From Chloroflexota bacterium (GTDB lineage: Bacteria; Chloroflexota; UBA5177): 32,813 bases of DNA. Below the pieces are notes generated by a model that was not told where the DNA came from, searched no databases, and saw only the letters and a list, made by a program, of their open reading frames with translations. Numbering within the stretch: the stretch's first letter is position 1; each line of letters opens with the position of its first letter. The position numbers and the translations under genes were made by a program. Positions 21,527-32,706 of this stretch are shown one piece after another. The stretch is taken from NCBI GenBank assembly GCA_003244175.1, contig QHBP01000366.1, positions 1-32,813 on the forward strand, written 5' to 3'.

Positions 21527-21871
21527 ATGATAAACATCACTGTCTCGCCGCGAGCGGCAGACGAGCTGAAGAAGGCACTCGGAACCGCGGAGCCGGAGCA
21601 GACCGTCAACGGTGTCCGTGTCATGGTGCAGAGCGCCTGCGGATGCGGCACCGCGCACTTCGCCATGGGCTTCGATGATGCCCAGCCGGAAGATGACCGG
21701 ATCGATCTGGGTGGAGTGACACTTCTGATCGATCCCGACTCGGCTCCCTATCTGGAGAACGCCGAGGTCGACTACTCCGACGATCTCATGCAAAAGGGAT
21801 TTCGCATCAACGCGCCGCAGTCCAGCGGCGGTGGTGGATGCGGCTGCGGAGGGCACGGACACAGTCACTAG
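21527..21871 (+). CDS. HesB/IscA-like (A-type carrier-like) protein
   Basis: This 114-residue protein has an ATG at 21527 behind AAGGAGG. The fold blocks INITVSPRAADELKKAL, VRVMVQSACGCG, GVTLLIDPDSAPYLENAEVDY and GFRINAP follow the A-type Fe-S carrier family. Cysteines C38 and C40 lie where IscA has its first ligand, and C105-x-C107 in GGCGCGGHGHSH replaces the C-terminal CxC. The His-rich tail is unusual. It may bind or transfer Fe-S clusters. No other Fe-S assembly genes are near. Confidence 0.85.
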   Translation: MINITVSPRAADELKKALGTAEPEQTVNGVRVMVQSACGCGTAHFAMGFDDAQPEDDRIDLGGVTLLIDPDSAPYLENAEVDYSDDLMQKGFRINAPQSSGGGGCGCGGHGHSH

Positions 21872-22193
21872 CTCGCACTCACCTGGTCTAGCTCGGCAGC
21901 TCTAGCCGTCCGTCACCGGAATGATGTTCGTGTTGCCGTCGATCCTCGTCGAGGATGTCCTGGTAACGGGATGCGAGGCCCAGAGACGCTGGACGGCGAC
22001 ATGTCACCGTGCGCGTGAGGGGCATGCTACGCGAGGACAGGAGAGGGCGACGACAAGCGTACGCCCCTACAGATATATGTCAATAATTGACGTCGGTGGG
22101 GTCGATCGTGGGGCTGAATGGGGAACCCCGATCTCTCGCGCGTATTGCGGCACCACCTCGTGAATCAGTGACACCATCACGTGTGGCCCTATC
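21872..22193. other. Non-coding stretch with an operator-like palindrome
   Basis: No gene is recognised. It contains a perfect inverted repeat GTCAAT-A-ATTGAC at 22079-22091 next to an AT-rich -10-like stretch, and the region just before a candidate structured RNA. The +strand ORF at 21921-22163 has no ribosome-binding site or family match. Confidence 0.4.
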
Positions 22194-22267
22194 TATAAGA
22201 ATTCGCTCTTGATTTTCGATTGCCAAAGGAGTTCAATAGACATGTAGCACCTGTTAAGGAGGCTTAC

Positions 22268-22303
22268 ATGGCGGTCATGGGACAACTGCGTGCCGGCTGG
22301 TAG
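22268..22303 (+). CDS. Possible 11-residue leader peptide
   Basis: An ATG at 22268 follows AAGGAGG (22256-22262) at the ideal spacing and encodes MAVMGQLRAGW before a TAG at 22301. The stop lies two bases before the first hairpin of the structured region, as in attenuator leaders. The start codon sits in a 6-bp stem whose loop holds the Shine-Dalgarno. Upstream, AAAGGAG (22225-22231) precedes an ATG-TAG start-stop pair at 22242-22247. Both could be translated to control the RNA. There is no amino-acid bias pointing to a specific attenuation signal. Confidence 0.4.
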   Translation: MAVMGQLRAGW

Positions 22304-22431
22304 AGCCCCTCGCGACGCTCGTAGAGGGGCGGCGAGTGGACGACAGCTTCTTTAGCTGCCGTGAAAAGATGCTCCAGACATTTGCACGGAGCAGACTCGA
22401 AGAGAGTCAATTTTAGCGCGAAACATAGCGC

Positions 22432-22461
22432 GGGGTCGCACACGATGCGGCCCCTTTTTTT
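22432..22461 (+). terminator. Strong intrinsic terminator
   Basis: GGGGTCGCA pairs with TGCGGCCCC (one G-U pair) around a 5-nt loop, directly followed by seven T. This is the clearest rho-independent terminator in the window, and its T-tract orients it to the plus strand. Confidence 0.85.
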
Positions 22462-22890
22462 GCACCGGCTGGCCTCCACTATCTCGTACTTCCCCGCGTT
22501 TCTCGGGTGGAAACCTGACACTGGCACCGCGGATGGCGACTGCCGCCCACAAGTCGCCCATGCCGCGCCGCGGGAACACTCCGCATGAAAATAGGGCGGG
22601 GTGGTCTCGCACGTTCCAAGGGTGTTCCCGTTCGGACTCGTCTAGGAGAGCACGCGTGTGGCCATGGAGAGCCAGCGCCACACCAGATTGCGGACGATGC
22701 CGGCGTCGTTGTCGGCGGCAAGGATGAGGGCGGCGGTGTTTGGCGACAGGTCCCTGCTTGGATGCAGACGGACGCGGCCACGGAGGGCAGGGCCACATCG
22801 ACGCGTCAATGACCCTGAACATTGCAATCTCCAACGAGATCTCCGAGCCTGAATGGTATGCCGCCCTCAACTAGAGAAGGACGTATCGCC
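22462..22890. other. Stretch without a recognisable gene
   Basis: Several ORFs of 60-170 codons exist on both strands, but none has a ribosome-binding site, a conserved motif or plausible composition. It may be a fully decayed gene or the distal leader of metE. Confidence 0.4.
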
Positions 22891-22900
22891 ACGCGTCGGG

Positions 22901-22977
22901 AAAGGACTGCCTGAGCAAACAGGCCCGGTGCTACAATTCCGTAGCAATTGTCAATCAAGAGACAGACTCTCGTATCG
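22901..22977 (+). promoter_or_regulatory. S-box-like (SAM-I riboswitch-like) or operator element upstream of metE
   Basis: The segments GGACTG, GCAA and GGTGCTACAATTCC appear in the order and spacing trend of the 3' part of a SAM-I riboswitch core, whose consensus has GGGACTGGCCC, GGCAACC and GGTGCTAANTCC. GCCTG/CAGGC (22909-22913, 22920-22924) and GCTAC/GTAGC (22930-22934, 22941-22945) are perfect stems. The closing P1 stem and the kink-turn half were not found, so if real it is divergent or degraded. The same bases also form ACAATT/AATTGT (22933-22938, 22946-22951), and TTGTCA at 22948-22953 could instead be a -35 box. Confidence 0.3.
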
Positions 22978-23007
22978 AAGGGTTTGTCACATCCAGAGGG
23001 AGGGCGC

Positions 23008-25311
23008 ATGGCACGGTCACATAACTTGGGGTACCCGCGTATCGGGAAACGTCGCGAGCTGAAGCGCGCCACGGAAGGCTATTGGTCCGGCAAAATCAGC
23101 ACCGAGGACCTGCTTGGACAAGTCGCCACGATCCGCGAGACGAACTGGAAGACGCAGCGAGATGCGGGCATCGACCTGATTCCGTGCAATGACTTTTCTC
23201 TATACGATCAGGTGCTCGACACCGTCGCGCTCGCCGGTGCCGTTCCAGACCGCTATCACTGGAGTGAAGACGCCGTCGATCTCGACACGTACTTCGCCAT
23301 GGCGCGAGGCGCCCAGCGGGAGGGGTTGGATGTCACCGCGCTCGAGATGACCAAGTGGTTCGACACCAACTACCACTACCTTGTCCCGGAGCTGGTTCCT
23401 GGACAGACATTCCGCCTGGCGTCGACCAAACCCTTCGACGAGCTCGATCATGCCAGCTCGCTGGGCATTCATGCGAAGCCGGTCTTGATCGGACCGGTGA
23501 GCTTTCTGCTCCTGAGCAAGAGCCGGGATGAGCGGTTCGACCCTCTGTCTCTTCTAGATGCCCTCGTGCCGGTTTACCGGGAGGTCGTGTCCCGGTTGGC
23601 CGAGATGGGTGCGGAGTGGATCCAGCTCGACGAGCCCTGCTTCGTCCAGGATCGATCGGGTGACGAGCGCGCTGCTTTGACGCGCGCATACGGGGATCTC
23701 GCGGCCCACCGCGGCGCGGCGAAATTGCTTGTCCAGACGTACTTCGACAGCGTCGGGGATTCATATCGGACGCTGGCAGCACTTCCTGTTCAGGGTGTCG
23801 GGCTGGACTTCGTCCGCGGACCGCGAAATCTCGACCTTCTGAACTCGTTCGGCTTCCCTTCAGACAAAGTGCTGGCGGCGGGTATTGTGGATGGCCGCAA
23901 TGTGTGGCTGAACGACATGGAGCGCTCTCTCGGGCTCAGCGAACAGATCGGCAAGCATGTCTCCAGCGACCGATTGTTTCTCAACCCGTCCTGCTCGCTC
24001 TTGCACGTGCCATATGACGTCCATCTGGAGCAGGATCTCGATCCACGCCTGGTGGAGTGGCTCGCGTTCGCGGAGCAAAAGCTGGCGGAGGTTGTGACGC
24101 TGGCGCAAGCGGCCACGGACAGAGAGTCGGTGTCCGGTGTTCTGCAAGCGAATGCTGAGGCAGTGCAGCGCCGGCGCCAGTCCGAACGGGTGCACCGGTC
24201 AGAGGTCAAAGACCGCGTAGCGGCTGCGGGCGAGCAGGAAGCCAACCGCGGTATCGAGTACGTCGAGCGCAGGGAAGCTCAGCATCACGCGCTTGAACTC
24301 CCGCTCTTTCCAACGACGACCATCGGAAGCTTCCCGCAAACGCCCGAGGTACGCCGCAACCGGAATCGGCTGCAAAAGGGGGAGATTACTCAGGGGGAGC
24401 ACGACCGCTTCATCTCTGAAGAAATCCAGAAGCTCGTCGCCTTGCAGGAGGAGATGGGCATCGACGTGCTGGTACATGGCGAGTTCGAACGGAGCGACAT
24501 GGTCGAGTACTTTGGCGAACGCATGGACGGCTTTGCCTTCACACGCCATGGCTGGGTTCAGTCCTACGGGACCAGGTACATCCGGCCGCCGATTATCTTC
24601 GGCGATGTTGCTCGACCCCAGGCGATGACGGTGCGCTGGTCGACCTACGCGCAGTCGCTGACGGACAAACCGGTCAAGGGGATGCTCACCGGTCCTGTCA
24701 CCATACTCAACTGGTCCTTCGTTCGGGACGATCAAACACGGGCTGTGACCTGCAAGCAGATCGCCCTCGCCATACGGGACGAGGTTCGGGATCTCGAGAA
24801 CGCCGGGATTCGGATCATTCAGGTCGACGAGCCGGCCCTTCGCGAGGGACTGCCGCTCCATCACGGCGACCGGCAGGAATACTTGAACTGGGCAGTGATG
24901 TGTTTCCGTCTCGCTACCGCAGTCGCGAGCCCGGCCACGCAGGTCCATACGCACATGTGCTATAGCGAGTTCGACGACATCATCGAGGCCATCGCCGCGC
25001 TCGATGCCGACGTCATATCCATCGAGAACTCGCGGTCGAATCTCGAGCTGCTCGACACCTTTCGACGTTTTGATTATAAGCAGGAGATCGGTCCAGGCGT
25101 GTACGACATTCACTCGCCACGCGTTCCCACGAGCGACGAGATGCGTGGCAATCTCAGCGCCGCAAGCGACGTGCTGGACCGCGGCCAGCTCTGGATGAAT
25201 CCGGACTGTGGGCTCAAGACCCGCCGCTGGGAGGAAGTCCTCCCGGCGCTGCGGAACATGGTAGCCGCCGCCAGAGAGCTACGGGAGACGGAGGTCGCAC
25301 TCAGTCGTTAG
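23008..25311 (+). CDS. metE: Cobalamin-independent methionine synthase
   Basis: This 767-residue enzyme transfers the methyl group from 5-methyltetrahydrofolate (polyglutamate form) to homocysteine to make methionine. I chose the ATG at 23008 (MARSHNLGYPRIGKRREL) behind GAGGGAGGG; the ORF extends to 22948 without a start signal. The N-terminal domain starts with the conserved GYPRIGKRRELK. The catalytic C-terminal domain begins near residue 430 with LFPTTTIGSFPQT. All four zinc ligands are present: H649 and C651 in HTHMCYS, E673 in ISIENSRS, and C734 in NPDCGLKTR. Each is eight residues later than in E. coli MetE. It leads an operon with cdd and an MDMPI-like gene. Confidence 0.98.
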   Translation: MARSHNLGYPRIGKRRELKRATEGYWSGKISTEDLLGQVATIRETNWKTQRDAGIDLIPCNDFSLYDQVLDTVALAGAVPDRYHWSEDAVDLDTYFAMARGAQREGLDVTALEMTKWFDTNYHYLVPELVPGQTFRLASTKPFDELDHASSLGIHAKPVLIGPVSFLLLSKSRDERFDPLSLLDALVPVYREVVSRLAEMGAEWIQLDEPCFVQDRSGDERAALTRAYGDLAAHRGAAKLLVQTYFDSVGDSYRTLAALPVQGVGLDFVRGPRNLDLLNSFGFPSDKVLAAGIVDGRNVWLNDMERSLGLSEQIGKHVSSDRLFLNPSCSLLHVPYDVHLEQDLDPRLVEWLAFAEQKLAEVVTLAQAATDRESVSGVLQANAEAVQRRRQSERVHRSEVKDRVAAAGEQEANRGIEYVERREAQHHALELPLFPTTTIGSFPQTPEVRRNRNRLQKGEITQGEHDRFISEEIQKLVALQEEMGIDVLVHGEFERSDMVEYFGERMDGFAFTRHGWVQSYGTRYIRPPIIFGDVARPQAMTVRWSTYAQSLTDKPVKGMLTGPVTILNWSFVRDDQTRAVTCKQIALAIRDEVRDLENAGIRIIQVDEPALREGLPLHHGDRQEYLNWAVMCFRLATAVASPATQVHTHMCYSEFDDIIEAIAALDADVISIENSRSNLELLDTFRRFDYKQEIGPGVYDIHSPRVPTSDEMRGNLSAASDVLDRGQLWMNPDCGLKTRRWEEVLPALRNMVAAARELRETEVALSR

Positions 25312-25325
25312 GAGGGTACCACAAG

Positions 25326-25739
25326 ATGGATGAGGAACTGTTGCGCCAGGCCCGCTTTGCCGCCGTGTACGCGCACGTGCCGCACTCCGGTTTTCCGGTG
25401 GGAGCGGTGGTTGTCGGCCATGACGGTCAGGCTTATCGTGGGTGCAATGTCGAATCGGCGTCCTTTGGCCTGACGGTATGCGCGGAACGCGTGGCCATTT
25501 ACGCGGCCATCGCGTCCGGTGCGAAACCCGTCAGCATCGCGGTCTCCTGTACCGAAGGCGATCTGTCGGATTCGGCCTCGCTCATGCCCTGTGGTGCGTG
25601 CCGCCAGGTGATGATCGATCACATGGACCCCGACGCCGCGGTCTTTGTGGACGGAGTGGGGGAGTTTACGGTCAAGGATCTCATGCCGAAGGGGTTTCGC
25701 CTCCGTAGTCGCCGCGGAGAGGTCGCCGTCGAAGGCTGA
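25326..25739 (+). CDS. cdd: Cytidine deaminase
   Basis: This 137-residue enzyme hydrolyses cytidine and deoxycytidine to uridine forms in pyrimidine salvage. The ATG at 25326 follows AGGAGGG, 14 bp after metE. The active site is complete: C52 and E54 in VCAERVAI, and C89 and C92 in MPCGACRQ, which bind the catalytic zinc with E54 as proton shuttle. The N-terminal substrate block HSGFPVGAVVV and the Asn-Glu pair in GCNVESASFG are also present. Length fits the small tetrameric type. Confidence 0.96.
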   Translation: MDEELLRQARFAAVYAHVPHSGFPVGAVVVGHDGQAYRGCNVESASFGLTVCAERVAIYAAIASGAKPVSIAVSCTEGDLSDSASLMPCGACRQVMIDHMDPDAAVFVDGVGEFTVKDLMPKGFRLRSRRGEVAVEG

Positions 25740-28255: not shown

Positions 28256-29345
28256 CTACGCGCCGGCACGTCCTGCCGAGAGCTCGTCATGCGCATAGTC
28301 CATGACCTGCTCCAGGCTCATAGTTCGCCCTTCTGCGGCCGCTGCCGTGAACGCCTCGTTTTCCATCTGCCCACGGACCGCCGTCATTTCTTGGCCGTAT
28401 CTGACACGGGCGGCGGGCGCCATTGCCGACTTCATGGCCTCATGGAGTGCCGTGGCCGCTCCGTGCAGCCGTCCCGCCCGCTCCCCAAGACCTTGCGCAC
28501 ACGCCAGGCGAGCCATCCCTTCCAGGCACCGCGCAATTCCCGGCCGCGTGTTCAACCCGCAATGCAGCTCCAGGCTTTCCTCATAGAGCGCCAGTGCCTG
28601 CCGGTAGTCGTGCTGCTCGCGGGCCACGCCGGCCAGCTGTTCGAGGGCGAAGGCGATGCAGCGTCGATCCCCTATTTCCTGGAAGAGCGCAAGGCTTTGG
28701 GCAGTAAGCGCCTTGCCGCCCTCGAGATCGCCCATGCCGGAGGCTGCCTCCCCCTGGTTCAAGAGCACATAGGCCACCCCGTAGTTCGTCCCGAGCGAGC
28801 GGTAGAGCTCGAGACTTTGCTCACAAAAGACCACCGCGCCCGCATAGTCGCCCATTTGCGTGGCCGCTTCCCCCGAGCGAGACAGGACATCCGCAATGCC
28901 CGACGTGTCTCCCAGCTGATAATGAAGAGCGAGAGCCTCCTCATAGAGGGGCAGTGATTGGGAGGGGCTACCCTGTTCCGATGCCAGGTTGCCAAGTCTC
29001 GCCAGCACGTCCGCAACTCGCCTGACGTCTCCGCTGGCGCGACCGAGGGCCAAAGCTTCTCCGAACAGGGCGGTTGCTCCCTCATAGTCACCCTGGTACC
29101 GCCTGACCCCTGCCTTGACGCTGAGTACGGCACACACGCCCGGCCGATCCTCCAGCTGCCGGTAGATGACCAGGCTCTCGTCGAGCAGCCGTTCGGCCGG
29201 ATGGTAGTTGCCTCGACCACGCTCCGTCTCGCCCAGCAGCTGGAGCGTCTCAGCGGTGCATCGATCGTTCCCCGTCTGCCGCTCCAGTGCCAGGGCCTGG
29301 CGCAACATCACGACGGAGAGCTCATTATTACCCTGAGTGCCGGCA
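28256..29345 (-). pseudogene. TPR-repeat C-terminal part of the XRE/STAND regulator
   Basis: The minus-strand frame is open from about 29345 (GNNELSVVMLRQALALERQTG) to the stop at 28256. The usual first start-like codon is at 29311. It encodes about eight TPR units of 40 residues (LLGETERGRGNYHPAERLL, LGNLASEQGSPSQSLPLYEE, LNQGEAASGMGDLEGGKAL and others). The tail ends RYGQEMTAVRGQMENEAF and TMSLEQVMDYA, a common end of these regulators. It is in a different frame from the XRE/NB-ARC part and the NB-ARC second half is absent. It may still be translated from the overlapping ATG at 29311. Confidence 0.75.
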
Positions 29346-30111
29346 CAGCGGGAGAGCGGCCGATGTCGACCTCCCGCTCGGGGAGCGGCAAGGGAGCGAG
29401 CGTGTAGACGCGCTCCCCGCGCACTCGCAGCGCTTCCCGGCTCGTGATGAGAATGGAGGCACCCGGGCAGGCGCCGAGGAGGTCGAGCACGACGTCGCGC
29501 GAGTTCAGCAGGTGTTCCATGTTGTCAAGCACCAGAAGCACCCGACTCGACCGCAGCTCGTTCACAACCACGTCAAACAGAGATCGTGTCCCCTCCTCCC
29601 GGATGGACAACTGTGCAGCGATCGCGCCCAGGACGTTCTCGGGATCACGGAGGGGCGCCAGCTCCACAAAGACGATGCGATCGATGACGTCCGTCATCTG
29701 CTCAGCCACCGTGACAGCCAGACGGGTCTTGCCGACTCCACCCGTCCCGCTCACCGTCACCAGCCGGCGATCCGCCAGCAGCATCTTGACGATCGCGACA
29801 TCCTCCTCGCGACCGATGAGGGGAGTGAGGAAGCGAGGAAGTGACGGAGCGCGCGCCGGCACATCGTCGGCCGGGGAGCCCGGTCGAGCCGCCGCCAGCA
29901 GACCCGATTGTTCATGGCCGGCGAGATCAAGGGCCTGGGCCAGAAGTCGAACGGTCTGGAGACGTGGCGTGCGATCGCGATCATGCTCCAGGCGACGGAC
30001 GGCCCGCTCGCTGAGCTCTGCGCGCTCCGCCAGCTCCTCCTGTGTCAAGCCGGCCGCCAGACGCAGACGCAAGAGCAACGCCCCAAACGGGACCCGCTCC
30101 TCCGCCGTCAC
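29308..30111 (-). pseudogene. XRE helix-turn-helix plus NB-ARC-type ATPase, 3'-truncated regulator
   Basis: This is a 267-residue ORF with a GTG start at 30111. Residues 8-63 are an XRE-type HTH (LRLAAGLTQEELAERAELSE, then RAVRRLEHDRDRTP). After FLTPLIGREEDVAIVKMLL comes Walker A GTGGVGKT at 122-129 and Walker B VLLVLDNMEH at 191-200, then SILITSREALRVRGERVYTL. Normal members go on with about 200 residues of NB-ARC helical and winged-helix subdomains and then TPRs. Here the protein runs into an unrelated tail (GRSPAVPALRVIMSSPS) and stops at 29308, overlapping the TPR ORF. An internal deletion with frameshift is the simplest explanation. Confidence 0.8.
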
Positions 30112-30176: not shown

Positions 30177-30205
30177 ATAGTAGGATGCGATAGAGAATCT
30201 GTCAA
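30177..30205 (-). promoter_or_regulatory. Promoter of the XRE/STAND regulator at the IS66 end
   Basis: On the minus strand a perfect TTGACA (30205-30200) lies exactly 17 bp from TACTAT (30182-30177, 4 of 6). The -35 box overlaps the stop codon of the IS66 transposase gene, so the insertion may have supplied half of a promoter that now drives the regulator. Confidence 0.65.
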
Positions 30206-30828
30206 GGGTCAAAGGAAGAGAGTAAGTGCTCAGGAAGCGTGAGAGTGACCCGAGAGGTGCTCATCGTCGGCATGGGAACAGCCAGGGGCGACGGCACACC
30301 CGGTGGCGCGAGCAAGAGCTGCTGGCAGATGGCGGTGGGATCCGTGCCTTGGATGCGCGCCGTGGCACAGATCGAATAGAGGATCATGCGCGTTGTGCTC
30401 CCCGTTGCCGATCTCGTCCCGCCGCTAACCTTGCGCGCTATGACGAGTGGGCGCAGACTCCGCTCGGCGGCGTTGTTCGTGGCATCGACCAGGGGCTCGC
30501 GCACAAACGTAAAGAGCTCGGGTAGATGGGTCCGCAGCCGTTTGGCGAGAGTGGCGTACGGCAGGCGTGGATCGAGCACGCTCGGGCAGAGTAGGAGAAT
30601 GAGCGCCTCACACTGTCGTGCTCGCTCCTCCCGGGCGCGGATGGCCTGGGGCGTGCATCCCTCTTCCGGCGGCGGTCGCGCCCTGCTCGCCTGAGCGTAG
30701 ATCGACAGAATGCCTTCGGCCCAGGCACCCGTCTCGGTGGTGTCCGCGACATGCTCGTCCCGCAGCGCCTTCAGCTCCCGCACCAAATGCGCCCAACACC
30801 GTTGCTTGGCACCGAGGAAGTGGTTAAA
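30202..30828 (-). pseudogene. IS66-family transposase, 3' exon
   Basis: The minus-strand frame from about 30828 encodes NHFLGAKQRCWAHLVRELK, a helical insert, then PLVDATNNAAERSLRPLVIA followed by RKVSGGTRSATGSTTRMILYS. These are the C-terminal half of IS66 transposases (TnpC), including the last catalytic Glu of the DDE triad (in NNAAERSLR). The N-terminal 300 residues with the first two Asp are not in the window: the frame is broken by the 3' end of a group II intron. The upstream exon should lie beyond position 32813. No inverted terminal repeat was recognised downstream of the stop. Confidence 0.85.
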
Positions 30829-30864
30829 CTCAGCCACCGTCCTCGCGGAGGCGACTGGTCTCCA

Positions 30865-30898
30865 GAACCGGACGTGACGGTTTCCCATCATCCGGCTC
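30865..30898 (-). ncRNA. Group II intron domain V
   Basis: The 34-nt minus-strand hairpin starts GAGCCGGATGATGGG and ends CACGTCCGGTTC, with a GAAA tetraloop and the AGC-type catalytic triad in GAGCCG. This is the catalytic core of group II introns. It lies 53 bp after the RT/HNH stop codon, as expected. Confidence 0.85.
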
Positions 30899-30950
30899 CT
30901 CAGTGATGCAGTCTTTGACTCAGATACCGCCGGTCCGTCACTCTTGCGGA

Positions 30951-32706
30951 TCATGTTTCGCCTCTCCGGCGTCGATGGTCCTGGTTCTGGACCGTTTTTA
31001 CGTGGTGGCAATGCCGGTGGAGCGCCTGTTTGTTCCTGAGGTGATGACCACCGGCAGGATCGATGTGGTCCACCTCGATCACGTCGCTATCGCGGAAGTA
31101 CAATCCACAGCATGCGCATTTTCCCAGCTGTCTGCCCAGGAGAGTCCCGACCGTCGTTCGCGTGAGGGGATGATCGCGCAGTCGCTTGCTCCAGTAGACC
31201 AGGTTCCCGTCGAACGGTGACGCCATTCCTCGAACCTTGCAGTGGTTGAGGTGGAAAGTGTCCGTGTGGTGCCGGAGCCGGCTGCTATCCTTCGGCGACG
31301 CAAAGGTCCACGCCTGTGGCGGCCGCATCGTCCAGTACCGGCGAACGATCCACCTCATCCCTTTCCGCGGGTGACGGCGCTGGGCCCAACGAAGCAGTTG
31401 CTGGGTCAACACGTGATCGGACGCCGCGAACGAGCGGTTGCAGCGCTGGGCGATCCGGAAGTAGTTCGTCCAGCCCACGATGACGGGTGAGAGCTGTACA
31501 ATCAACTCCCGTTGGGGCGCGCCCGATGTACCCGGAGGATGCTCTTCGTGTGCGCCAGGTGCCGTTTGATGGACTCCTTGCTCACGGTGATCTGCGTCCG
31601 GAAGCCTAGAGGCTGACCATTAGTCCGCCGTGCAGTATGCGTCTTGCCTGCCGGCCACTGACGGATGGTGAAGCCCAGGAAGTCGAACCCGACCTGGCCG
31701 TTCACTGGCTGATAGGTATGGGTGATCCTGGTCTTGTCTTGGTTGAGCTCAAGTCCCATGCGAGCGAGGAAGTCCTCGATGGCCAGCTTGGCTACCTCTA
31801 TGCCTTCCCGGTGTTTGCACAGGACCACAAAGTCATCCGCGTACCGTACGAGCCGGGCCTTGATGGGCGTGTATCGTTCGCTCTTTCGCCGAGGGACATC
31901 GTACGAGTCGTAGACCACCTGCTCCAGCCCGTGGAGGGCCACGTTCATGAGGAAGGGGGAGATCACTCCACCCTGCGGTGTCCCCTGCGTGGTCGGGACA
32001 TGGTCGCCTCCCACCATGACCCCTGCTTTGAGCCACCCTTGGATGGCCTGCTGGATGACCCGCGGCGCCTTGAGCTTGCAGAGCAAGGCCGGGTGCGAGA
32101 TGTTGTCGAAGCATCCTTGGATGTCCGCATCGAGGACGTACTTATCCTCGGTGTGGATGTTGTTGTAGATCGCTCCGATCGCATCCCAGCAGGAGCGTCC
32201 TGGGCGGAACCCGTAGCTATTGGGCTCAAAGCGTGCTTCCCATTGCGGTTCGAGTGCCATCGCGACCAAAGGGCTTGGTGGGCCCGATCCAACATCGTCG
32301 GGATGCCCAATCGGCGTCCTTCCGGTTTGCCTGGCTTGGGAATGATCACCTGGCGCACCGGTTTCGGTCTGATGGTCCGCGGGTCTGCCAGACGAGTGAC
32401 CAGAGCGAACCGGTCTTTGGGTCGAACCGACCGAACGCCATCGACCCCGGCGGTCACCTTTCCCTGGTTCTCCTGGGTCACCCGGCGAACTCCCAGCATC
32501 CTGGTTGACCAGGACTTCAGCAGCAGACGTTGGAGGCTGTGGACTGCCTTCTTGTTGCCACGTTGTTCGGCTCGGTAGATGCGCCGTTGCTGGCGGAACA
32601 CGTGTTGCTCTAGCTTGCGCCAGTTGACCGCGCTCCAGTCTTCGATCGGTGCTGTCACCGTCGCTTCCGTTTCGGCCAACTCGGGTGCCTCTACCTTCCA
32701 CATCAC
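30951..32706 (-). pseudogene. Group II intron-encoded reverse transcriptase/maturase/HNH protein, split in three frames
   Basis: The start MMWKVEAPELAETEA lies at 32706 or close to it. The N-terminal part (NWRKLEQHVFRQQRRIY, TAGVDGVRSV, VIIPKPGKPEGRRLGIPTM) runs to about 32265. The RT palm then continues in a second frame with EPNSYGFRPGRSCWDAI, GTPQGGVISPFLMNVAL and the catalytic YADD at 31832-31843. From about 31515 a third frame carries the maturase segment (LIVQLSPVIVGWTNYF; RRHPRKGMRW) and a C-terminal HNH nuclease (CACCG, EVDHIDP, LHRHCHHVK). One missing base near 31520 (GCGCGCCCC for GCGGCGCCCC) and a one- or two-base change near 32265-32272 explain the splits. The length if repaired is about 585 residues. 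Confidence 0.85.

What the first reader, a model, noticed from the sequence alone, without database searches (positions are those of the whole stretch)
22241..22461. Unassigned, densely structured RNA with a strong terminator
Six perfect hairpins stand almost end to end, and the last is a near-ideal intrinsic terminator (9-bp stem, T7) on the plus strand. No protein gene lies just upstream to need it, so a separate transcript ending there is likely. It does not show landmarks of tmRNA, RNase P, SRP or 6S RNA. It is the best candidate in the window for an undescribed element: a small RNA, or an attenuator whose regulated gene was lost or is the distant metE.
Basis: partly seen in the sequence, partly recalled or inferred. 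Interest (0 to 1): 0.75.

Follow-up and report, generated by a model that had tools for sequence, protein, structure and literature searches.

The report
Free-standing small RNA encoding tiny peptide
The flagged stretch is a real, conserved ~220-nt RNA gene of an uncultured Chloroflexota group that folds into a chain of hairpins, ends in its own terminator and carries an overlooked 11-codon gene whose peptide ends in Arg-Ala-Gly-x just before the stop; what it regulates is not yet known.

Summary
In detail: window 22241-22461 (+) contains a run of hairpins ending in a strong intrinsic terminator, folds far better than shuffles (z -5.1) and matches no Rfam family, even at E<=5. It is conserved in three other genomes of the same order (two at 66-72% DNA identity, one found by covariance model, E 5.8e-8), each time with the same layout and a terminator, and fold z-scores from -3.3 to -6.4.

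It keeps its reading frame in the relatives through synonymous codon changes; the shared tail is G[Q/E]xRAGx-stop, followed 1-2 nt later by an invariant GCCCC/GGGGC hairpin. A fifth, probable member in another class of the phylum shares the peptide tail, hairpin, -10 box and a terminator.

No downstream gene is shared. In two genomes the next gene, metH, is convergent, and the terminator is predicted to form whether or not a ribosome sits at the stop codon. A plain metE attenuator is therefore unlikely. Best reading: an autonomous small RNA with a translated, possibly ribosome-pausing leader peptide. Expression, stalling and targets are untested.

The parts
22209..22237 (+). promoter-like boxes TTGATT (22209-22214) - 17 nt - TTCAAT (22232-22237)
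   Evidence: Same position and 17-nt spacing in G002 (TTGACA/GAGAAT) and G001 (TTGACT/AACAAT); TATAAT at the corresponding place in G005 and G072. The window copy is weak and below the consensus scan's threshold.
22256..22262 (+). Shine-Dalgarno AAGGAGG, in the loop region of a small hairpin
   Evidence: AAGGAGGCTT or AGGGAGGCTT in the four members of the order. The flanking stem varies compensatorily: GUAAG/CUUAC in G002, AAAG/CUUU in G005 (read from the sequence).
22268..22303 (+). mini-ORF of 11 codons, MAVMGQLRAGW*
   Evidence: Frame, start, stop and tail G[QE]xRAGx* kept in G001, G002 and G005, and in the probable member G072; synonymous changes dominate in the close pairs.
22305..22330 (+). 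hairpin P3, GCCCC...GGGGC, starting 1 nt after the stop codon
   Evidence: Present in all five members 1-2 nt after the stop; first five pairs invariant, inner pairs differ.
22344..22358 (+). hairpin P4 CAGC-UUCUUUA-GCUG (5 bp with the flanking pair)
   Evidence: Hairpins at the same place in G002 and G005, not in G001; weakest element.
22370..22393 (+). hairpin P5, GCUCC stem with 12-nt conserved loop (AGACAUUUGCAC)
   Evidence: Stem invariant and loop ACAUU core nearly invariant in the four order members.
22394..22408 (+). hairpin P6 GACUC-GAAGA-GAGUC
   Evidence: Pairs with changes on both sides across members.
22416..22431 (+). hairpin P7 GCGC...GCGC
   Evidence: Invariant in the four order members.
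22432..22461 (+). intrinsic terminator P8: 9-pair stem, 5-nt loop, T7
   Evidence: Found by the terminator scan; stem conserved in the four order members; predicted to form with mean pairing probability above 0.95 in all tested states.

Best explanation
The stretch is an autonomous small-RNA gene of about 220 nt with its own promoter and a constitutively folding terminator. It carries a translated 11-codon leader peptide near the 5' end, followed by a string of hairpins. Most likely the ribosome translates the mini-ORF and slows or pauses as the RAG-x tail reaches the peptidyl-transferase centre at the stop codon. This sets whether the stop-adjacent GCCCC/GGGGC hairpin and the downstream part of the RNA are free, so the RNA works as a standalone (dual-function) regulator rather than as the leader of one fixed gene. 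Shown by sequence: conservation, the ORF, the hairpins, the terminator, and the absence of a shared downstream gene. Inferred: transcription, translation, pausing and trans action.
For: Conserved unit in four genomes of two families. Fold z-scores -5.1, -3.3, -4.9, -6.4. Mini-ORF with synonymous substitution pattern and conserved tail GxxRAGx*, reaching a probable member in another class. Promoter-like box and terminator in every member. Downstream genes differ, and metH is convergent in two of five. No Rfam family.
Against: No expression data. Promoter match in the window is weak. Covariation is sparse with 3-4 sequences. No homologue in G003, G004 or G006, which are incomplete. A quick test of the conserved P5 loop against the start regions of neighbouring genes showed no pairing beyond shuffles. 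The RAG tail lacks the Pro that completes known RAGP/RAPP arrest motifs.
Confidence: 0.55

Rival explanations
1. Ribosome-dependent transcription attenuator: pausing at the mini-ORF releases the terminator and turns on the next gene in cis (metE in the window, rhodanese in G005, cupin-lysR in G072).
For: Layout (promoter, Shine-Dalgarno, short ORF ending at a hairpin, terminator) is that of leader-peptide attenuators. In three of five members a same-strand gene follows.
Against: No antiterminator is predicted: the terminator forms with mean probability above 0.95 whether or not the ORF and stop region are masked. In G001 and G002 the next gene is convergent. metE begins about 0.55 kb after the terminator. 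The downstream gene is not conserved.
Confidence: 0.2
2. The mini-ORF is the whole point: the RNA is a very short mRNA for a functional peptide, and the hairpins only stabilise it.
For: The peptide tail is the only part shared with the distant member G072, whose 3' half is otherwise different.
Against: Within the order, the 3' hairpins, including a 12-nt loop, are as conserved as the ORF. Only the last seven residues of the peptide are conserved, and its N-terminus and length vary (11 to 17 codons).
Confidence: 0.15
3. A cis-antisense or terminator element of the neighbouring methionine synthase gene (metH 3' end in G001/G002), retained by chance after metE took that place in the window.
For: In G001 and G002 the element abuts the 3' end of metH; metE lies at the corresponding place in the window, judged by one downstream syntenic gene.
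Against: G005 has the RNA away from any methionine synthase, G003 has metH without the RNA, and a conserved ORF and 5' boxes are not expected of a metH 3' end.
Confidence: 0.06

Closest known systems
Attenuator-derived sRNA rnTrpL with leader peptide peTrpL (Sinorhizobium meliloti; PMC7298713)
   Same: Short RNA with a leader peptide under 20 aa and a terminator, whose RNA and peptide act in trans
   Different: rnTrpL comes from attenuation in front of trpE(G) and is read as a leaderless mRNA; here there is a strong Shine-Dalgarno, no shared downstream gene and no predicted antiterminator
Dual-function sRNAs SR1/SR1P (PMC8152036, PMC8501984) and VcdRP (PMC8672173)
   Same: Autonomous sRNA that also encodes a small protein
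   Different: Those proteins are longer (29 aa for VcdP) and have known targets; this peptide is 11-17 codons with a stop-proximal RAG motif and has no known target
SecM and RAPP/RAGP-type arrest peptides (PMC12992588, PMC10951299)
   Same: C-terminal Arg-Ala-Gly preceded by a conserved Gly
   Different: No Pro after RAG, a stop codon after one more residue, no long N-terminal part, and neighbours that are not protein-export genes

Membership tests
Any Rfam 15 family | match to a covariance model | tested here: not met
   No match at gathering score or at E<=5 over 21860-23020
Ribosome-dependent transcription attenuator | short ORF with Shine-Dalgarno upstream of an intrinsic terminator | tested here: met
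   Mini-ORF 22268-22303 and terminator 22432-22461
Ribosome-dependent transcription attenuator | alternative fold that removes the terminator when the ribosome pauses | tested here: not met
   Mean terminator pairing 0.956 or more with the region up to 12 nt past the stop masked, in all five members
Ribosome-dependent transcription attenuator | regulated gene downstream on the same strand | tested here: not met
   metH is convergent in G001 and G002; downstream genes differ
Dual-function sRNA | own promoter and terminator | tested here: inconclusive
   Terminator clear; promoter boxes aligned across members but weak in the window
Dual-function sRNA | translated ORF | tested here: inconclusive
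   Coding-type substitutions over 12 codons; no ribosome data
Dual-function sRNA | base pairing with target mRNAs | tested here: inconclusive
   Only neighbouring gene starts tested against the P5 loop, no support; other targets not searched
SecM/RAPP-type arrest peptide | R-A-[P/G]-P core | tested here: not met
   Core is RAG followed by W, R, C, R or L, never Pro
SecM/RAPP-type arrest peptide | translation arrest | not testable with these tools
   Needs toeprinting or a reporter assay
tmRNA / tRNA | tRNA-like domain | tested here: not met
   ARAGORN finds none in the window

The most novel reading that the evidence does not exclude
A new class of nascent-chain sensor carried on a free-standing RNA: a very short peptide ending G[QE]xRAGx-stop pauses its ribosome in response to a metabolite or translation state, and the ribosome-occupied or ribosome-free RNA then acts in trans.
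Probability: 0.25. Interest if true: 0.75.

Novelty: new variant of a known kind. Interest (0 to 1): 0.5.

Why it matters
Small RNAs of the largely uncultured Chloroflexota are poorly known. This is a defined, testable RNA family with a conserved peptide of 11-17 codons. If the peptide pauses ribosomes, it would be an arrest-type motif with RAG next to the stop codon that is not tied to one downstream gene, unlike the attenuators it resembles.

Tried and rejected
Rfam at relaxed threshold: nothing. Genome-contig scan with the P5 pattern: 8 hits, of which only G001 and G002 are real; the other six are in unrelated sequence. A phylum-wide covariance search gave one extra weak hit (G352), which is an ordinary terminator. 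Viral contigs motif scan: four hits, none with the layout. Plasmid and phage blastn: no match, so no sign of a mobile element. Relaxed mini-ORF search in the class: no credible copy in G003, G004 or G006. The 3' flank of metH in G003 lacks the element. P5-loop pairing with neighbouring gene starts: no support. metE riboswitch idea: no Rfam riboswitch upstream of metE. A second relaxed motif scan of the phylum, which drew largely the same genomes, returned no further members. Literature searches for a described Chloroflexota RNA or leader peptide of this kind found none among the listed papers.

Full report
What was checked. The interval 22241-22461 folds to -98.1 kcal/mol against a shuffle mean of -75.8 (z -5.1, 0 of 200). 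Four perfect stems of 5-7 bp, one 4-bp stem and a 9-pair terminator (one G.U) with T7 stand nearly end to end. Hairpin number alone is only mildly above chance (39 of 500 shuffles reach it), so the case does not rest on that count. Rfam is silent here at gathering score and at E<=5.

Conservation. Blastn finds the element in two genomes of the same family: G002 (72% over 207 nt) and G001 (76% over the 3' 100 nt, 66% overall). A covariance model of the 3' half finds a fourth copy in G005, another family of the order (E 5.8e-8). Folding z-scores of the three relatives are -3.3, -4.9 and -6.4. G003, G004 and G006 (83-88% complete) gave nothing.

The mini-ORF. Alignment exposed AAGGAGG followed by ATG GCG GTC ATG GGA CAA CTG CGT GCC GGC TGG TAG at 22268-22303. 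The relatives read MAVMGQSRAGR*, MAVMGQTRAGC* and MEAFVVLGEYRAGR*. Among the three close genomes, differences by codon position are 4/1/5, 1/1/8 and 3/1/5, with 3-6 synonymous against 2 non-synonymous codons per pair; Arg is CGT, AGG or CGA, and the stop is TAG or TAA. This is a coding signature, though over only 12 codons.

A distant member. A degenerate pattern (Shine-Dalgarno, RAG-x-stop, GCCC) over 400 phylum genomes gave many chance hits but also G072, in another class, with MQNRFTWMVMGEWRAGL*. A stricter pattern without the hairpin hit only the three close members and G072; the reversed control pattern hit once in 400 genomes. G072 also has TATAAT upstream, GCCCCG/CGGGGC one base after the stop, and a strong terminator. 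Its 3' half is otherwise different and its overall fold is less striking (z -2.0). I count it as probable, not proven.

Architecture. All five have a -10-like box, a Shine-Dalgarno, a mini-ORF, P3 abutting the stop codon, further hairpins and a terminator. In the order, P5 (GCUCC, 12-nt loop, GGAGC) and P7 are invariant, and P6 shows both-side changes. With so few sequences the covariation test has little power: with three sequences, column shuffles reach the observed value in 144 of 500.

Context. Window: Fe-S biosynthesis gene, RNA, then metE about 0.55 kb downstream. G001 and G002: RNA convergent with metH. G005: RNA, then rhodanese and NifU-like genes. G002 and G005 share a divergent phosphodiesterase gene upstream of the RNA. 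G072: solute-binding protein gene, RNA, cupin, lysR. The window and G002 share a cytidine-deaminase gene beyond the methionine synthase, suggesting that metE sits where metH sits in relatives. G003 has metH without the RNA nearby. A fixed cis target is therefore unlikely.

Mechanism. Masking the ribosome footprint at the stop codon does not disturb the predicted terminator in any member (mean pairing above 0.95), which argues against simple attenuation. The peptide tail RAG matches the first three residues of SecM's RAGP, a motif reported to support arrest (PMC12992588), but Pro is absent, so pausing is a lead and not a finding. My commitment is to an autonomous small RNA with a translated leader peptide (0.55). 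Within that, action of the RNA is preferred over pure peptide action because, inside the order, the 3' half is as well conserved as the ORF. A first look for pairing between the P5 loop and neighbouring gene starts was negative.

Comparison. Nearest in kind are attenuator-derived or dual-function sRNAs such as rnTrpL/peTrpL (PMC7298713) and SR1/SR1P or VcdRP. It cannot be filed as an attenuator (no shared downstream gene, no antiterminator predicted) nor as a SecM-type peptide (no RAGP). It is a new RNA family of a known kind, with an unusual very short conserved peptide.

Noticed in passing
window 30202-32701 (-): Group II intron: reverse transcriptase ORF 31502-32701, maturase/HNH ORF 30951-31505 in another frame (possible frameshift), domain V at 30823-30901 (Rfam); the C-terminal part of an IS66 transposase starts just beyond, so the intron seems to sit inside an IS66 transposase gene.
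   Followed up: partly
window 22948-25739 against L004 6272-15537: metE occupies the place that metH has in a relative, next to the same cytidine-deaminase gene; no metH activation domain was found in the window's genome, which is 82% complete.
   Followed up: partly
window 28256-30111 (-): HTH plus NB-ARC/AAA ORF (29308-30111) and TPR ORF (28256-29311) in neighbouring frames; a relative next to metH in G002 (L004 9844-12210) is a single 788-aa protein, so the window gene may be split.
   Followed up: no
L067 5451-5505 (+): A viral-contig match to the mini-ORF motif lies in a longer frame reading VMGEVRAGAW, which resembles the self-cleavage site region of phage S24/LexA-like repressors (resemblance from memory); any link to the mini-peptide is probably coincidence.
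   Followed up: no
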